Of a stretch of DNA of 44,900 nt, positions 1 to 7,339 are shown in pieces (the stretch's first letter is position 1; every line of letters begins with the position of its first letter). The DNA comes from Nitrospirota bacterium (GTDB lineage: Bacteria; Nitrospirota; Thermodesulfovibrionia; UBA6902). A program made the translations under genes and the position numbers. Under the pieces are notes generated by a model, which was given only the letters and a program-made list of their open reading frames with translations, was not told where the DNA came from and ran no database searches. The stretch is from NCBI GenBank assembly GCA_016222905.1, contig JACRPZ010000084.1:1-44900 (forward strand). The letters run 5' to 3'.

Positions 1-7
1 ACTTCAT
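1..7 (-). CDS. First codons of a gene running off the left edge
   Basis: On the minus strand an ATG at 7-5 is followed by AAG and leaves the window. It is called only because a strong Shine-Dalgarno (GAGGAGGT) ends six bases upstream of it. Nothing can be said about the product. The gene is divergent from the efflux operon that starts at 215. Confidence 0.4.
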
Positions 8-107
8 ATGTGCACCTCCTCTTAAATTTTAGGGGATATTAACACTATCACCCTGTTTTAAACATTAGGGGTTAGCTTTTTGCTATCGCCCTCAGGAGGT
101 GCACTCT
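8..107 (-). promoter_or_regulatory. Structured 5' leader: SD-sequestering stem enclosing two similar hairpins
   Basis: Read on the minus strand, AGGAGGTGCAC at 20-10 contains the Shine-Dalgarno of the left-edge gene. It is perfectly complementary to GTGCACCTCCT at 104-94, about 73 bases upstream in the same RNA. The loop holds two related hairpins. One is 92-67 (AGGGCGATAGC, loop of A, GCTAACCCCT) and the other 54-31 (AGGGTGATAG, loop, TATCCCCT). Both follow the pattern AGGGYGATAG...TA.CCCCTAA. This suggests RNA-level control of translation (riboswitch, thermosensor or protein-binding leader), which is inference. I do not recognise a named riboswitch class. Confidence 0.5.
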
Positions 108-120
108 TTTTCATGTTATC

Positions 121-191
121 ATTCCCGCTTGTCGGGAATCTGACGTTTATCATAACTGTTTAAAACGACACGATTCCGGACAAGCCGGAAT
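121..191. repeat. Dispersed palindromic repeat pair (copy 1)
   Basis: Two short palindromes, ATTCCCG-CTTGT-CGGGAAT at 121-139 and ATTCCGG-ACAAG-CCGGAAT at 173-191, are separated by about 33 bases. The same arrangement recurs at 22796-22862. This is a REP/MITE-like intergenic repeat. It sits between the divergent left-edge gene and the efflux operon. Confidence 0.7.
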
Positions 192-214
192 GACAACGAA
201 ATAAGGAGACAGAC

Positions 215-1507
215 ATGAAGAAAATTATTATTTCGATTTTTTTATTACTGTTAATCCCTCTCAAAGCAGGCGCGGAAGATATCATTAAGAAGGGTGAGAC
301 CCTCAATTTACAGAGGTGCATTGAGATCAGTTTGTTGCGGCAGCCGAATATTCTTGCTGCGGCAAGTACCGTTGACGCAAACCGGAGCAGGGTGGGACAG
401 GCGCAGGCAAATTATTATCCCCAGATAAACCTGTCAGCAGGTTACAGCAGAATATCACCCATGGCAGGTACTGCGAGCGGCATCTCCACAGGAACTTCTT
501 CCGGCAATTATAATCAATACTCAAGCAGCGCCTCGCTGAGCCAGAATATCTATGACTTCGGCAGGACAGCGGCACAGGTGAAGATACAGAACCTCAATCT
601 TGATTCTTCCCGCTCAGACCTTGAGAATGTGTCGGAACTTACTATATTTAATGTTAAGCAGGCATATTATGGAATATTGGCGGCACAGAGGAACGTGATT
701 GTTGCCGCTGATTCCGTTAAACAATTCCAACAGCATCTTGAACAGGCTAAAGGATTTTTTGACGCCGGAACAAAGCCCAAGTTCGATGTCACGAAGGCGG
801 AAGTAGACCTCGGCAATGCAAAACTGAATCTGATTACCGCTGAAAATTCTTTGAAGATAGCCAGGGTGGTAATGAACAACGCAATGGGCGTACCGGATGC
901 GCCTGAATACGAGATAGAAGACAATCTTGATTTTTTAAAATTTGAAATTGCATTCGATAATGCCCTGGAGACGGCATATGCGAACAGGCCTGACCTCAAG
1001 TCTCTCATTTTCAAAAGAGAGGCGACGGAAAGCTCTATCAAGCTTGCAACCAGGCAGTATTATCCCTCCCTCTCAGGCAGCGCATCGTATAACTGGGCAG
1101 GAGAGGATTTCCCCCTTGATCACGGATGGTCAGCGGGAGCAACCTTATCGTTTCCGTTGTTCAGCGGGTTCCTTACCAAATATCAGGTGCAAGAGGCACA
1201 GGCAAACCTGAAGATAATCAGGGCAAACGAAGAGGCATTGAGGCAATCCGTTCTCCTTGAGATCCAGCAGGCGTTTCTGAACCTGCAGCAGGCAGAGGAG
1301 AAGATAAATACTGCGGGACTTAACGTGAAACAGGCTGAAGAGAACCTTGAGATCGCAAGCGGCAGGTATGGCGCGGGTGTGGGCAGCCCCATTGAGGTAA
1401 CAGATGCAGAGGTATCCATGATCAACGCAAAGACTTCTTATAACCAGGCTCTTTATGACTATAAGATCGCCCAGGCAAGCCTTGAGAAAGCAACGGGTGT
1501 AAGATGA
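215..1507 (+). CDS. TolC-family outer-membrane efflux channel
   Basis: This 430-residue protein has an N-terminal signal peptide (MKKIIISIFLLLLIPLKAGA) followed by the two-fold repeated alpha-helical/beta layout of OEP (TolC) proteins. Long Gln/Ala-rich helices lie around residues 35-215 and 240-425, including the typical SLSQNIYDFGRT and SFPLFSGFLTKYQV strands. The family forms trimeric outer-membrane channels joined to inner-membrane pumps by periplasmic adaptors. The start has a good ribosome binding site (AAGGAG, six bases upstream). The stop overlaps the next start as ATGA, so it is co-translated with the MacA-like adaptor. It is the only outer-membrane channel in an operon with two different pumps and probably serves both. 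Confidence 0.92.
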   Translation: MKKIIISIFLLLLIPLKAGAEDIIKKGETLNLQRCIEISLLRQPNILAAASTVDANRSRVGQAQANYYPQINLSAGYSRISPMAGTASGISTGTSSGNYNQYSSSASLSQNIYDFGRTAAQVKIQNLNLDSSRSDLENVSELTIFNVKQAYYGILAAQRNVIVAADSVKQFQQHLEQAKGFFDAGTKPKFDVTKAEVDLGNAKLNLITAENSLKIARVVMNNAMGVPDAPEYEIEDNLDFLKFEIAFDNALETAYANRPDLKSLIFKREATESSIKLATRQYYPSLSGSASYNWAGEDFPLDHGWSAGATLSFPLFSGFLTKYQVQEAQANLKIIRANEEALRQSVLLEIQQAFLNLQQAEEKINTAGLNVKQAEENLEIASGRYGAGVGSPIEVTDAEVSMINAKTSYNQALYDYKIAQASLEKATGVR

Positions 1508-2679
1508 AAAAAATATTAATCGGCATTTTAATCGCAGCCGCAGTTGGATCAGCAGCGTTTTTTTTATTCAAAGGCAATAAAGACGAGATGAATTTCAAGA
1601 CTGAAAAAGTTGCCAAAGGCGATATCGTATCATCCATTACCGCATCAGGCGCGGTAAACGCGGTGACAACAGTCCTTGTCGGAACACAGGTCTCCGGCAC
1701 AATAAAAAATATATATGTTGATTTCAATTCCGTGGTAAAACAGGGACAGCTCATAGCGCAGATTGACCCGGCTATTTTCGAAGCGCAGGTGGAGCAGGCA
1801 AAGGCGAACCTCCTTTCAGCAAAGGCAAACGTGGAAAAGGCAAACGTGGCGCTGGCGGACGCGCAGAGAACTCTGAAGAGACAAAAAGAACTCTTTACAA
1901 AGAATCTGATAGCAATGAGCGACGTTGACGCTGCCGGGACAGCCTATGATGCAGCCGTCACACAGGTGAGCGCTGCAAAGGCGCAGATGGCCCAGACAGA
2001 GGCTGCCCTGAAGATAACAGAGACGAACCTGAGATATACGAGGATAGTATCTCCGGTAAACGGAACCGTCGTATCCAGAAACGTGGATACAGGCCAGACA
2101 GTCGCGGCCAGCTTCCAGACGCCGACACTCTTTAACATTGCGCAGGACCTTACGAAGATGCAGATAAACAGCAGCGTTGCCGAGGCTGATATAGGGAAGA
2201 TACAGATAGGCCAGCCGGTTGAATTCACTGTTGACGCCTATCCCGACAGCCCCTTCAAAGGCACTGTATCCGAGATAAGGAATGCGCCGGTCACTGTCCA
2301 GAACGTAGTCACATATGATGTGGTGGTCAAGGTTGACAATCCTGAACTGAAGTTAAAGCCCGGGATGACCGCAAATGTATCAATCATCGTTTCAAGCAAA
2401 AGTAATGTCCTCAGGATACCAAATGCAGCCCTTCGCTTCAAGCCTTCTGCTTCTGATCAGCAAAAGACAAATGAGAAGAGGGAAAAGGGCAGCGGAGTAT
2501 GGGTCCTTGAGAACGAGAAACCCAAGCGCATTGCAATAACAACCGGCATAAGCGACAGCACATATACTGAACTACTTTCAGGCAAAATAAGGGAGGGACA
2601 GGAAGTGATCGTCGAGTCACTTTCAAAACCAAAAAATCAGTCACAGTCCCCGTCTTCAGTGCCGCGCATGCGTTTCTGA
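1504..2679 (+). CDS. macA: MacA-like periplasmic adaptor (HlyD/RND membrane-fusion family)
   Basis: This 391-residue protein has an N-terminal membrane anchor (about residues 4-22), a lipoyl/barrel-sandwich half (VSGTIKNIYVDFNSVVKQGQ), a coiled-coil hairpin at about residues 90-160 rich in Ala/Lys/Gln, and a second lipoyl half (SPVNGTVVSRNVDTGQTV). A beta-barrel domain with the usual PDSPFKGTVSEIRNAP segment follows. In the family this protein bridges an inner-membrane ABC permease and TolC. It overlaps the channel gene by four bases and lies one base before the ATPase gene, an arrangement diagnostic of a MacAB-TolC type exporter. The substrate (drug, peptide, lipid or siderophore) cannot be read from sequence. 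Confidence 0.9.
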   Translation: MKKILIGILIAAAVGSAAFFLFKGNKDEMNFKTEKVAKGDIVSSITASGAVNAVTTVLVGTQVSGTIKNIYVDFNSVVKQGQLIAQIDPAIFEAQVEQAKANLLSAKANVEKANVALADAQRTLKRQKELFTKNLIAMSDVDAAGTAYDAAVTQVSAAKAQMAQTEAALKITETNLRYTRIVSPVNGTVVSRNVDTGQTVAASFQTPTLFNIAQDLTKMQINSSVAEADIGKIQIGQPVEFTVDAYPDSPFKGTVSEIRNAPVTVQNVVTYDVVVKVDNPELKLKPGMTANVSIIVSSKSNVLRIPNAALRFKPSASDQQKTNEKREKGSGVWVLENEKPKRIAITTGISDSTYTELLSGKIREGQEVIVESLSKPKNQSQSPSSVPRMRF

Positions 2680-2680
2680 T

Positions 2681-3373
2681 ATGGCCCTCATCGAAACACA
2701 TGAGATCACCAAGACTTACAATCTTGGTGATATAGCCTTGAATGCCCTCAATAATGTTTCACTGAATATTGAAAAAGGCGAATTCATAGCCATCATGGGG
2801 CCCTCCGGTTCAGGCAAGTCTACATTTATGAATATTATCGGCTGTCTTGATAAGCCGACAGGCGGAAGGTATCTGCTCGAAGGGGTCGATGTGGCTCACA
2901 TGAACAGGGATGAGCTTGCATCCATAAGAAACAAAAAGATAGGCTTTGTCTTTCAGGGTTTTAATCTGCTGCCGAGGACTTCAGCAATAGAGAACGTTGA
3001 GCTCCCTCTGCTCTATGACGGCCTTGCCGCAAAGGAGAGGGCAGAGCGCTCAGCAGCAGCGCTTGCAAAAGTCGGTCTTGCAGGGAGGGAAAACCACCAT
3101 CCTAACCAGCTCTCAGGAGGCCAGCAGCAGAGAGTGGCCATCGCACGGGCGCTGGTAAACAACTCGCCTATAATCCTCGCGGATGAGCCGACAGGGAACC
3201 TTGACACAAAGACAAGCGCTGAGATAATGGAGCTTTTTGTGAGATTGAACAAAGAGTCAAATATCACGATCATTGTTGTGACCCATGAAAAGGACATAGC
3301 TGATTTCAGCAGGAGGCTGATATTCTTCAGGGACGGCGTTGTCCTCAGCGATGAATCATCAGGGAAGATATGA
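2681..3373 (+). CDS. MacB/LolD-type ABC transporter ATP-binding protein
   Basis: This 230-residue ATPase has Walker [10 protein letters not shown], a Q-loop ([22 protein letters not shown]), the signature LSGGQQQR, Walker [12 protein letters not shown] and an H-loop (VVTHEKD). The NLLPR...NVELPL segment is characteristic of the LolD/MacB/FtsE subfamily that powers mechanotransmission rather than classical substrate import. In E. coli MacB the ATPase is fused to the permease; here the two are separate genes, as in many other bacteria. It starts one base after the adaptor stop and overlaps the permease start by four bases. Confidence 0.93.
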
Positions 3374-4599
3374 TCAATATACCTTCAACAATACGCATAT
3401 CCTTCAGGGCGCTCAGGGTGAACAAGATGCGCTCTGCCCTCACCATGCTCGGAATTATCATTGGAGTCGGCGCTGTCATCACCATGCTTGCTGTGGGAAC
3501 GGGAGCGAAACAGAAGCTTGGGGACCAACTCGCAAGCATTGGAAGCAATCTTATCATGATAGTGCCAGGATCAAGCGCCGCAGGCGGGGTGAGGATGGGG
3601 GCAGGGACACAGTCTACGCTTTCCATAAGTGATGCAGATGCAATACAGAAGGAGTGCCCTGCGGTATTGTATGTTGCGCCGGTACACAGCGGGTCGGCCC
3701 AGGTGGTCTACGGCAACCAGAACTGGGCTACCAGCATTACCGGGACCACGACAAATATGCTCTCTGTGAGGGATTGGCCGCTGACAGGGGGAAGGCCTTT
3801 CAGCGATGAAGAGGTCAGGAGCGCGGCAAAGGTCTGCCTGCTCGGCCAGATAGTAGTTGATAATCTCTTCGGAGGCATCAACCCCATCGGCCAGATCATC
3901 AGGATAAAGAATGTGCCCTTTACGGTCATTGGGATCCTTGATACTAAAGGCCAGGACCCTACCGGACGCGACCAGGACGATACCATCTACGTCCCGATAA
4001 CAACAGCACAGAAGAAGCTCTTCGGCACTGCATTCCCGGGGATGGTGAGGATAATAATGGTGAAGGCAAAAAGCACTGAAGACCTTGCCGCAGCAGAAAA
4101 ACAGATAAACGAACTGCTGAGGCAGAGGCACCATATCGGGCAGAATGAGGAGGAAGACTTTACAGTGCGTAACCTTACACAGTTTATGCAAGCCGCAGAG
4201 CAGCAGGCAAGGGTAATGGCCCTGCTGCTTGGGGCAATTGCGTCTGTATCCCTGCTTGTGGGAGGAATCGGCATAATGAACATCATGCTGGTCTCGGTCA
4301 CGGAACGTACCAGGGAGATCGGCATCAGGATGGCTATCGGGGCCAAGACCTGGGACATCAGGCTCCAGTTCATCATAGAGGCGCTTATCCTCTCTATGAT
4401 AGGAGGGGTGGCGGGGATCATTGTAGGCATATCCGGCTCAGAGATATTGTCGATGCTCGCAGGATGGAGCACTGTCGTGTCTCCCTTTTCTATCCTGCTG
4501 GCCTTTGGTTTTTCAGCGCTGGTTGGAATATTCTTCGGATTTTACCCTGCTTACAAAGCTTCTCTGCTTGATCCTATAGATGCGTTGAGATATGAATAA
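3370..4599 (+). CDS. macB: MacB-type ABC transporter permease
   Basis: This 409-residue protein has the MacB_PCD plus FtsX layout. One N-terminal transmembrane helix is preceded by the conserved segment [25 protein letters not shown] large periplasmic domain spans roughly residues 45-270. Three C-terminal helices follow, with the signature [21 protein letters not shown] and the terminal [17 protein letters not shown]. It overlaps the ATPase gene by four bases. It should form the MacB-like dimer with the preceding ATPase and work with the MacA- and TolC-like proteins encoded upstream. A block of hairpin repeats separates it from the EmrA-like gene. Confidence 0.92.
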
Positions 4600-4607
4600 G
4601 CTAATTA

Positions 4608-4698
4608 ATTCCCCCTTTGTAAAAGGGGGATGCAGGGGGATTTTTTGAAATTTTATAAAATCTCCCCTCACCCCTCTTTGCCTAAGAGGGGAAGGACA
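4608..4698. repeat. Hairpin-rich intergenic repeat block
   Basis: CCCCCTTTGTAAAAGGGGG followed by a second GGGGG-ATTTTTT run, then CCCCTCTTTGCCTAAGAGGGG, gives at least two stable hairpins in a 90-base stretch. A related element (CCCCCTTAAAAAAGGGGG) lies at 43742-43760. The block divides the MacAB part of the export operon from the EmrAB part. It could act as an attenuator or mRNA processing site, or be an inert mobile repeat. Confidence 0.6.
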
Positions 4699-4724
4699 AA
4701 AAATAAAACTCGCGAGAGGTAGAA

Positions 4725-5825
4725 ATGGAAGAACAAAAGACTTCACCACCTGCAAATCATAAAAAAAAGAAAATAGCCGCTGTGGTCTTTGCACTTATTG
4801 CAATAACAGGCATTATCATAGGCTATCTTTATGTCCAGTATAAAAAGACCCACATCACAACAGACGATGCGTTTATCACAGGGCGCGTTCATACCATCGC
4901 ATCAAAAGTTTCAGGGACAGTAAAAACCATTTACATTAAAGACAATCAGACAGTTAAGCAGGGAGAGCTTCTTATTGAAATAGACCCGGCGGATATTGAA
5001 GTAAGGCAGAAAGAATCCTCTTCAGGTCTTGAAGCAGAAAAGTCAAAACTCATAGAGTTGAAATCTAAACTAGATACAGCACGGCAGCAGTTTGAAGAGC
5101 TTAAATCGGCAGTTGGAGTAGTAAAGGCAAATATCGAGCTTCAGGATGCAAGCATGAAACAGGCAGAGGCAGATATGAATAGGGCCGAGAACCTCTTTAA
5201 AGAAGGCCTTATCTCAGAAGAAAGATTTGAGAAGACAAAGACAGCGTATGATGTTGTGCTTGCCCAGGTAAAATCTGTCAAAGAGGAAGTCAAACAGGCA
5301 GAGTCGCGCCTTGAGACACAGAAGGCAATCATAAGACAGGCCTCTGCGGCAATAGAACCGCAAAATGCATTGATCAGACAAAAAGAGGCTTCACTGGCAG
5401 CATCTGAACTCAACCTCGGCTATACAAAGATTTCTGCCCCTACTGATGGTTATATAACAAGGAAATCTGTTGAAACGGGAAATCAGATTCAGACGGGACA
5501 GCCTCTTATGGCTGTTGTGTCTCTTTCTGATACATGGATTTTAGCCAACTTCAAAGAGACGCAGCTTGAAAGAGTGAAAGTAGGACAGAAGGTTGAAATA
5601 GAAATAGATTCCTATCCCGGTAAAAAATTCACAGGTAGAATAGAAAGCATAATGGCTGGAACCGGTTCAGTATTTTCGCTCTTTCCGGCGGAGAACGCTA
5701 CGGGAAATTATGTTAAGGTCGTACAGAGGGTACCGGTGAAAATAGTGTTTGATAAAAATACAGACTCCGAACATATTTTGCGAATCGGAATGTCTGTTGC
5801 CCCGACTGTTTTAATTCAAGAATGA
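4725..5825 (+). CDS. emrA: EmrA-like periplasmic adaptor (HlyD family)
   Basis: This 366-residue protein has a short Lys-rich cytoplasmic tail, one transmembrane helix (about residues 15-37), the EmrA hallmark HITTDDAFITGRVHTIASKVSG, a long coiled-coil hairpin (about residues 90-220), and a second lipoyl half with YTKISAPTDGYITRKSVETGNQI. A beta-barrel domain (LANFKETQLERVKVGQKVEIEID) follows. EmrA proteins couple DHA2-type MFS pumps to TolC. The ribosome binding site is GAGAGG, five bases before ATG. The stop overlaps the MFS gene start (ATGA), indicating translational coupling. Confidence 0.9.
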   Translation: MEEQKTSPPANHKKKKIAAVVFALIAITGIIIGYLYVQYKKTHITTDDAFITGRVHTIASKVSGTVKTIYIKDNQTVKQGELLIEIDPADIEVRQKESSSGLEAEKSKLIELKSKLDTARQQFEELKSAVGVVKANIELQDASMKQAEADMNRAENLFKEGLISEERFEKTKTAYDVVLAQVKSVKEEVKQAESRLETQKAIIRQASAAIEPQNALIRQKEASLAASELNLGYTKISAPTDGYITRKSVETGNQIQTGQPLMAVVSLSDTWILANFKETQLERVKVGQKVEIEIDSYPGKKFTGRIESIMAGTGSVFSLFPAENATGNYVKVVQRVPVKIVFDKNTDSEHILRIGMSVAPTVLIQE

Positions 5826-7339
5826 ACAAATGGCTTGTCGCGTTAACAGTAATGCTCCCCACGCTGATCGAGATCATAGACACTTCTGTTGTCAATGTCT
5901 CTCTGGACCACATACGCGGAAGCCTTTCTGCCGGCATTGACGAATCCACATGGACGATCACGTCATACCTTGTGTCCAATGCCATTATAATCCCCATGAC
6001 GGGATGGCTCAGCAGATATTTCGGCAGGAAGCGGTATATGATGGCTTCCATATCTTTATTTACTCTGAGTTCACTGCTTTGCGGATTGGCCTGGAATCTG
6101 CAGAGCCTTGTCTTTTTCAGGGTGCTTCAGGGTATCGGAGGAGGCGCACTGCAGCCCTTGTCGCAGTCAATACTCTTTGAGACATTCCCGAAAAAGCAGC
6201 ATGGGATGGCCATGGCAATATTCGGCGTAGGCATCATGTTCGGACCCATAATCGGGCCGCTTCTCGGAGGCTGGATAACTGACAACTGGTCCTGGCACTG
6301 GATCTTCTTTATAAATATCCCTATAGGCATCATATCTATATTGCTTGTGGCATTTGTAATAATTGACCCGCCGTATATGCAGCGGATGAAGATGAAGATC
6401 GACTACTGGGGGCTTGCTTTGCTCTCAACAGCGCTTGGATGCCTGCAGATAGTCCTTGATAAGGGAGAGAGGGCGGACTGGTTTGCGTCGGATTTTATAA
6501 CATGGCTGAGCATACTATCAGCAGCCACTTTCATACTCTTTGTGATCAATGAATTGTTCGCTGAACATCCCATCGTAAATCTGAAGACGTTCAAAAACGT
6601 AACCTTCAGCGCGGGCAATATAATCATGTTCCTTGCATTTTTCAATCTGTTCGGCAGCATTGTACTGCTGCCGATATACCTTCAGACGCTTATGGGATAT
6701 ACCTCAACACTTGCAGGAGTAGTGCTTGGCCCCGGCGGGATAGCAACACTCATTGCAATGCCTATAGCGGGAAGACTTATAACAAAGGTGAATCCAAAGG
6801 GCTTGCTCGGATTTGGCATACTTGTGGCCGCTTACTCTGTTCATCTCATGTCCAATTTTAATCTTGCCGCTGATTTTAATACCATTATCTGGCCGAGGCT
6901 CGTGCTTGGTGTCGGTATGGGATTTATTTTTATACCCCTTACGACCATGACCATGTCGGGCATCAAGAAAGAGGAAATGGGCAACGCAACAGGAATCTAT
7001 AATCTCCTCAGGAACCTCGGTGGCAGTTTCGGTGTTGCGTTTATTACGACCATGATAACAAGGCGAGCGCAGTTCCATCAGACACGTCTTGTAGAACATC
7101 TCACTCCGTTTGATAGAAGCTACCAAATAACTACGTCACAGTTATCGCAGATTTTCCAGCAAAAGGGATTCGATCCGGCCACTTCAGAGCAAGCAGGGTT
7201 GAGCAGTATTTACGGTCAGTTATTGAGACAGGCCTCGATGATGTCTTTTAATGATGCTTTTCATCTGCTCAGCGTGCTTATGATATGCACCTTTCCCCTC
7301 CTTTTTTTAATAAAGAGGCCTAAGATAGATAGTCATTAG
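5822..7339 (+). CDS. emrB: EmrB/QacA-type MFS efflux pump (DHA2 family, 14 TM)
   Basis: This 505-residue integral membrane protein begins MNKWLVALTVMLPTLIEIID. The aspartate in the first helix (IDTSVVNVSL), the motif A-like loop SRYFGRKRYMM, and the helix-5 motif C-like GVGIMFGPIIGPLLGGWI are typical of DHA2 drug:proton antiporters such as EmrB. Length and hydrophobicity fit 14 helices. With the EmrA-like adaptor and the upstream TolC-like channel it would form a tripartite pump for hydrophobic compounds. It is the last gene of the operon and converges on the VanZ-like gene, with only six bases between the stops and no obvious rho-independent terminator. Confidence 0.92.
   Translation: MNKWLVALTVMLPTLIEIIDTSVVNVSLDHIRGSLSAGIDESTWTITSYLVSNAIIIPMTGWLSRYFGRKRYMMASISLFTLSSLLCGLAWNLQSLVFFRVLQGIGGGALQPLSQSILFETFPKKQHGMAMAIFGVGIMFGPIIGPLLGGWITDNWSWHWIFFINIPIGIISILLVAFVIIDPPYMQRMKMKIDYWGLALLSTALGCLQIVLDKGERADWFASDFITWLSILSAATFILFVINELFAEHPIVNLKTFKNVTFSAGNIIMFLAFFNLFGSIVLLPIYLQTLMGYTSTLAGVVLGPGGIATLIAMPIAGRLITKVNPKGLLGFGILVAAYSVHLMSNFNLAADFNTIIWPRLVLGVGMGFIFIPLTTMTMSGIKKEEMGNATGIYNLLRNLGGSFGVAFITTMITRRAQFHQTRLVEHLTPFDRSYQITTSQLSQIFQQKGFDPATSEQAGLSSIYGQLLRQASMMSFNDAFHLLSVLMICTFPLLFLIKRPKIDSH

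What the first reader, a model, noticed from the sequence alone, without database searches (positions are those of the whole stretch)
1..110. Tandem-hairpin leader that can hide its own ribosome binding site
The Shine-Dalgarno of the left-edge gene sits in AGGAGGTGCAC, perfectly complementary to a segment 73 bases upstream. The loop holds two hairpins with a common pattern (AGGGYGATAG ... TA.CCCCTAA). Tandem similar hairpins within an RBS-occluding stem look like a designed RNA switch, and I cannot match them to a named class.
Basis: partly seen in the sequence, partly recalled or inferred. Interest (0 to 1): 0.62.

Follow-up and report, generated by a model that had tools for sequence, protein, structure and literature searches.

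The report
Transposon leader that locks its ribosome-binding site
The stretch is the left tip of a ten-copy jumping gene (an IS110/IS1111-type insertion sequence), and the RNA copied from it folds back on itself to hide the start signal of the transposase gene, a built-in brake that recurs with different letters but the same pairing in many related elements.

Summary
In detail: two perfect 11-nt arms (window 94-104 and 10-20) enclose two look-alike hairpins, with z = -4.9 against shuffles. It is not the leader of a unique host gene. It is the left end of an IS110-superfamily insertion sequence, present as 10 left and 10 right ends in this genome, all at contig edges and all in REP-like palindromes. 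A full relative (L029) shows the gene (IS110 RNA-guided transposase, NCBIfam 5e-63), a downstream non-coding region with target-like and donor-like guides, and IS1111-type subterminal repeats. No Rfam family matches the leader.

Covariation supports a Shine-Dalgarno-occluding stem. 26 of 52 distinct IS110-family leaders have a perfect stem of at least 8 bp over the SD (1.1 expected; 0 of 28 ordinary starts). True partners pair far better than swapped ones (63% against 8%). The 5' arm is usually the inner part of the element's own inverted repeat, and the SD segment is a third, inverted copy of it. Relatives carry one internal hairpin; the tandem pair looks like a local duplication.

Most likely function: a default-off translational clamp that keeps transposase low. 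The precedent is ISPpu9, where weakening such a structure raised expression 26-fold. A ligand or temperature switch is not supported. The trigger, if any, is unknown.

The parts
5..7 (-). start codon (ATG at 7-5) of the transposase gene, which runs off the left edge of the contig
   Evidence: C58 copy reads on; 37 codons, 86% identity to P0001; family of P0001.
10..20 (-). 3' arm AGGAGGTGCAC with the Shine-Dalgarno sequence (20-15); an inverted copy of the 5' arm
   Evidence: SD 7 nt before the ATG (sequence).
31..54 (-). second internal hairpin (AGGGTGATAGTGTTAATATCCCCT)
   Evidence: in copy C58 one G-C pair reads G-U.
67..92 (-). first internal hairpin (AGGGCGATAGCAAAAAGCTAACCCCT), the position of the single hairpin in relatives
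   Evidence: relatives.
94..104 (-). 5' arm (anti-SD) GTGCACCTCCT, next to the subterminal inverted repeat; a partner copy GGAGTGTGCAC lies in the right end
106..114 (-). subterminal inverted repeat ATGAAAAAG (right end: CTTTTTCAT)
113..118 (-). -10-like TAACAT; with TTGAAA of the right end at 17 bp it would form a promoter in the circular form
   Evidence: 9 of 12; not significant alone, P 0.14; significant in most of the related junctions tested.
115..121 (-). 7-bp left extension TGATAAC, tip of the element
   Evidence: 7 + 3 bp rule of IS1111 elements (PMC11187229) applied.
122..190 (.). REP-like palindrome pair that holds the insertion (target ...GGGAA^TGAC...)

Best explanation
Window 1-121 is the left end of an IS110-superfamily, IS1111-type insertion sequence. 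RNA that enters the transposase gene through this end, whether from an outside promoter or from the promoter that forms when the two ends join in the circular intermediate, begins with or contains the anti-SD arm. It therefore folds at once into a stem that hides the SD. This is a default-off clamp that keeps transposase synthesis low. The arm is part of, or adjoins, the element's subterminal inverted repeats, and the SD segment is a third inverted copy of it. The internal hairpins bring the two arms together. In this element that hairpin has been duplicated. Shown here: what the element is, the pairing and its covariation. Inferred: transcription start, repression in the cell, and what (if anything) opens the stem; leaky opening or an antisense RNA as in ISPpu9 are possible.
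For: 10 left ends and 10 right ends in the own genome, always in REP-like palindromes. Gene identity: NF033542 5e-63, PF01548, PF02371, with C58 continuing the reading frame. Subterminal repeat ATGAAAAAG/CTTTTTCAT with 7 + 3 bp outside it, and a downstream non-coding region with guides matching target and right end that change together with them (L029 ATAGATGA, L034 CATAGGTGA). Stem: z -4.9; 26 of 52 leaders with at least 8 bp over the SD, 1.1 expected; 0 of 28 ordinary starts in the window; own partner against swapped partner 63% and 8%, 0 of 2000 permutations. Two-sided changes: GC/CG/AU at the outer pair of the close family; 5 pairs and 23 cells, 0 of 500 shuffles for cells, in a second clade. 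The arm is part of the inverted repeat in L064, L077, L078, L079, L080 and others. Precedent: in ISPpu9 (same superfamily, REP-targeting) loosening the 5'-UTR structure raised translation 26-fold (PMC8450116).
Against: No transcript or expression data for this element. Half of the 52 leaders lack a perfect 8-bp stem, and IS4321, IS5075 and most plasmid-borne representatives tested lack it. In the close family most stem pairs never vary and only one pair changes on both sides. The own junction promoter is weak on paper. How enough transposase is ever made is not explained.
Confidence: 0.77

Rival explanations
1. The third repeat copy acts as DNA: the transposase binds LE, RE and the internal copy as sites (end recognition or promoter autoregulation), and RNA pairing is a by-product.
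For: The arm belongs to or adjoins the subterminal repeat in most elements inspected; DNA of this stretch also folds well, z -4.5.
Against: The internal copy sits at the SD and ATG with ribosome-like spacing in many clades with different sequences, and the internal hairpin covaries, which a DNA binding site would not need.
Confidence: 0.12
2. The leader is a true switch: an antisense RNA (as Asr9 in ISPpu9), the element's own guide RNA, or the right-end copy in the same mRNA displaces the stem and opens the SD. This adds a trigger to the clamp and is not exclusive with it.
For: Asr9 does this in ISPpu9 (PMC8450116). L029 has an extended -10 site on the antisense strand inside the gene start. 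The right end carries GGAGTGTGCAC, which could compete for the 5' arm. CCCCTAA of both hairpins is complementary to TTAGGGG in the L029 downstream RNA.
Against: The antisense site is one found against 0.7 expected; from the sequence it is not kept in L030. The complementarities are 6-7 nt and were not tested for chance.
Confidence: 0.25
3. Ligand riboswitch or RNA thermometer controlling a host gene.
For: Shape only: tandem similar hairpins within a stem that covers an SD.
Against: The gene is a transposase in a multicopy element; no Rfam hit; hairpin number varies between relatives; the stem stays shut at 60 C (10.7 kcal/mol).
Confidence: 0.02
4. The leader is the element's guide (bridge/seek) RNA itself, as in IS110-type elements with an upstream non-coding region.
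For: Structured RNA upstream of an IS110-family gene.
Against: Target-like and donor-like guides lie in the downstream region; the leader is only about 110 nt and I found no such guides in it by eye.
Confidence: 0.03

Closest known systems
ISPpu9 5'-UTR of Pseudomonas putida (PMC8450116)
   Same: IS110-superfamily transposase, inserted in REP sequences, leader that folds over the RBS and represses translation.
   Different: ISPpu9 has a 244-nt leader with an antisense RNA (Asr9) and a downstream sRNA (Ssr9); no tandem hairpins are described. Origin of the stem from the inverted repeat was not discussed in the parts I read. Here no antisense RNA is shown.
IS1111/IS110 elements with seekRNA or bridge RNA (PMC11187229, PMC11208160)
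   Same: DEDD transposase, subterminal repeats with 7 and 3 bp outside, downstream non-coding region with guides, promoter at the circle junction.
   Different: I found no mention of an SD-occluding leader in the passages I searched of these two papers.
IS200 / IS10 / IS50 protection against read-through transcription
   Same: Terminal sequence that, when transcribed from outside, folds over the transposase RBS (IS200: PMC3196728, citing earlier work; IS10 and IS50 from general knowledge).
   Different: Different transposase families. In IS10 and IS50 the internal promoter starts after the arm (general knowledge), whereas here the predicted junction promoter starts before it.

Membership tests
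IS110 superfamily (DEDD, RNA-guided) | DEDD_Tnp_IS110 and Transposase_20 domains | tested here: met
   For relative L029/P0001: PF01548 1.6e-14, PF02371 1.1e-24, NF033542 5e-63. The own gene is assembled only for its first 37 matched codons, 86% identical.
IS1111 group | subterminal inverted repeats with 7 bp left and 3 bp right outside | tested here: met
   ATGAAAAAG/CTTTTTCAT, 9 bp, 7 + 3 bp fit the empty target GGGAA^TGAC; slightly shorter than the usual 11-13 bp of PMC11187229.
IS1111 group | long non-coding region downstream of the transposase with target and donor guides | tested here: met
   In L029, L058, L034; in the own genome only the last ~140 nt of it are assembled.
IS1111 group | transposase falls in the IS1111 clade by phylogeny | not tested
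   No tree with reference elements was built.
RBS-occluding IS leader (as in ISPpu9) | structure that pairs the SD, conserved | tested here: met
RBS-occluding IS leader (as in ISPpu9) | loosening the structure raises translation | not testable with these tools
   Needs a reporter.
ISPpu9-like control by antisense RNA | antisense RNA promoter at the start of tnp | tested here: inconclusive
   One weak site in L029, 0.7 expected.
Rfam riboswitch, thermometer or leader family | match to a covariance model | tested here: not met
   No match at gathering score; the relaxed search gives only sub-threshold matches, mostly animal and plant microRNA families over the neighbouring palindromes.

The most novel reading that the evidence does not exclude
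A clade-wide translational clamp of IS110/IS1111 elements: a third inverted copy of the subterminal repeat supplies the Shine-Dalgarno, and the junction promoter starts just before the first copy, so that the sequence that defines the transposon's ends also silences its transposase.
Probability: 0.55. Interest if true: 0.55.

Novelty: new variant of a known kind. Interest (0 to 1): 0.42.

Why it matters
IS110-family recombinases are being developed as RNA-guided DNA-editing tools, but the only experimental account I found of how such an element holds its transposase down by leader structure is ISPpu9. A shared lock built from the transposon's own repeats would be a simple, testable rule for the superfamily. 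It also tells annotators that such leaders at contig edges are insertion-sequence ends, not riboswitches.

Tried and rejected
Riboswitch or other Rfam class: no match. Viral collection: no close relative and no exact match of the SD-ATG pattern; three distant IS110 genes only. Leader peptide from the ATGAAAAAG of the repeat: open in the window copy and fused in frame in L030, but stopped after 7 codons in L029, so not conserved. Antisense promoter as in ISPpu9: not significant. Rhizobium elements (L051, L052), the nearest plasmid hits, do not show the stem; Phaeobacter does (10 bp, 0 of 200 shuffles), ISEc45 and Vibrio weakly (7 bp, about 0.05). RNA thermometer: the stem is too stable. In one search a few loci were skipped, probably because alignment rows with the same names overwrote them; the rows shown were read from their loci.

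Full report
WHAT IS THERE. On the minus strand of window 1-121 two perfect 11-nt arms, GTGCACCTCCT (104-94) and AGGAGGTGCAC (20-10), enclose two hairpins (92-67 and 54-31). The second arm holds the Shine-Dalgarno sequence 7 nt before an ATG (7-5) at the left edge. The fold is far better than shuffles, z -4.9.

WHOSE LEADER IT IS. The stretch is repeated: ten left ends in the own genome, all at contig edges, identical or nearly so up to about position 127. Ten matching right ends were found with the downstream region of a relative. The contigs stop there because the element is a collapsed repeat. Every copy sits in a REP-like palindrome. The relative L029/L010 (G030, a Nitrospiraceae MAG) carries the complete element: left end, a 345-aa transposase and about 270 nt downstream. 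The protein is an IS110-family RNA-guided transposase (NF033542 5e-63; PF01548, PF02371). Copy C58 of the own genome reads at least 37 codons into the same gene, 86% identical.

WHICH KIND OF IS110 ELEMENT. The ends are TGATAAC-ATGAAAAAG... and ...CTTTTTCAT-AGA, that is, a 9-bp subterminal inverted repeat with 7 bp outside on the left and 3 bp on the right, the rule given for IS1111 elements in PMC11187229. The empty target would be GGGAA^TGAC. The region downstream of the gene contains GGAATGAT (target-like) and ATAGATGA (right-end-like) in L029. In the distant L034 the corresponding stretches are CAAGACTTGAT (its flank: CAAGACCTGAT) and CATAGGTGA (its right end: CATAGGTGA), so guides and sites change together. 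These were recognised by eye from the sequences. The guide RNA is therefore most likely downstream, as in IS1111, and the leader is something else.

IS THE LOCK CONSERVED? I collected leaders of IS110-family genes, mostly from the phylum (and the regions). Of 52 distinct leaders 26 have a perfect stem of at least 8 bp over the SD with the 5' arm 45-190 nt before the start; shuffling the upstream part gives 1.1. Of 28 SD-bearing starts of long reading frames in the window none has it. For 40 leaders anchored on the TGATA/TGATTA of the left tip, true partners reach 8 bp in 63%, swapped partners from other lineages in 8%, and no permutation of 2000 reached the observed mean. The stem sequences differ between lineages (GTGCACCTCC, GGCTGCAC, AGCGACCTCC, GGCACCTCC, AGGCCTCCT, GGCTCCTC, GCGTGCCTC, AGCTATGCC) while pairing is kept. 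In the close family the outer pair is G-C, C-G or A-U. In a second clade of 13 the outer stem and its single internal hairpin together have five pairs with two-sided changes; 23 cells change on both sides, 0 of 500 shuffles. Relatedness inflates such shuffle tests, but slid controls fail as well. A recurrent C.A mismatch opposite the SD adenine occurs in L058 and six of the 13.

WHERE THE ARMS COME FROM. In L064, L068, L071, L077, L078, L079 and L080 the 5' arm is part of the subterminal inverted repeat found again at the right end. In the window element it lies just inside the 9-bp repeat, and the right end again has GGAGTGTGCAC. The SD segment is thus a third, inverted copy of the repeat. 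Most relatives have a -35-like TTGACA just inside the right-end repeat and a -10 in the left tip, so the joined ends of the circle would form a promoter whose predicted start lies a few nt before the 5' arm. For the window element itself that promoter is weak on paper (TTGAAA-17-TAACAT, P 0.14).

THE TANDEM HAIRPINS. L030 and L058 have one such hairpin, the window element and L029 two with the same pattern (AGGGYGATAG...CTA.CCCCT, bulged Y). The simplest reading is a duplication of the single internal hairpin. Deleting either or both in silico leaves the outer stem intact, so they probably shorten the loop and help the arms meet.

HOW IT WOULD WORK. Opening the SD costs about 15.6 kcal/mol in a transcript that starts at the junction promoter, and 2.5 if the 5' arm is missing. 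Any transcript entering through the left end is therefore predicted to be locked. ISPpu9, a REP-targeting relative, gives the experimental precedent: mutations that loosen its leader raised translation 26-fold (PMC8450116). I infer a default-off clamp. Whether it is ever opened by an antisense RNA, by the guide RNA or by the right-end copy is open; the hints are weak.

LIMITS. No expression data. The own transposase and guide RNA are not fully assembled. The lock is common in this phylum but not universal: IS4321 and IS5075 lack it; Phaeobacter has it; ISEc45 and Vibrio show weak versions. My literature search covered open-access papers only, so 'not described' means not found there.

Noticed in passing
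window 122-196: A pair of REP-like palindromes (ATTCCCGCTTGTCGGGAAT, ATTCCGGACAAGCCGGAAT) of a family scattered through the genome; all ten copies of the element sit in such palindromes.
   Followed up: partly
window 215-7339: Two adjacent efflux-type gene sets (from their sequences: TolC-like, MacA-like, MacB-like, then EmrA-like and EmrB-like) directly beside the insertion; the transposase reads away from them.
   Followed up: no
L058, L081, L090, L091, L093, L095, L112 leaders: Recurrent C.A mismatch opposite the adenine of the SD in an otherwise perfect locking stem; it may tune the strength of the lock.
   Followed up: partly
L030 2420-3538: In the Smithella copy the leader is in frame with the transposase from the ATGAAAAAA of the left repeat, giving a possible 27-residue N-terminal extension; not conserved in L029.
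   Followed up: partly
L011, L013, L015, L017, L018 (G087): A decayed multicopy relative with the same outer stem (ATGCACCTCC/GGAGGTGCAT) but three different internal hairpins; its copy in L013 has an early stop codon.
   Followed up: partly
L032 2480-2560: A Planctomycetota contig holds a 19-codon fragment of the transposase start (79% identity) followed closely by a right-end-like CTTTTTCATAGATGAC, possibly an internally deleted or non-autonomous copy.
   Followed up: no
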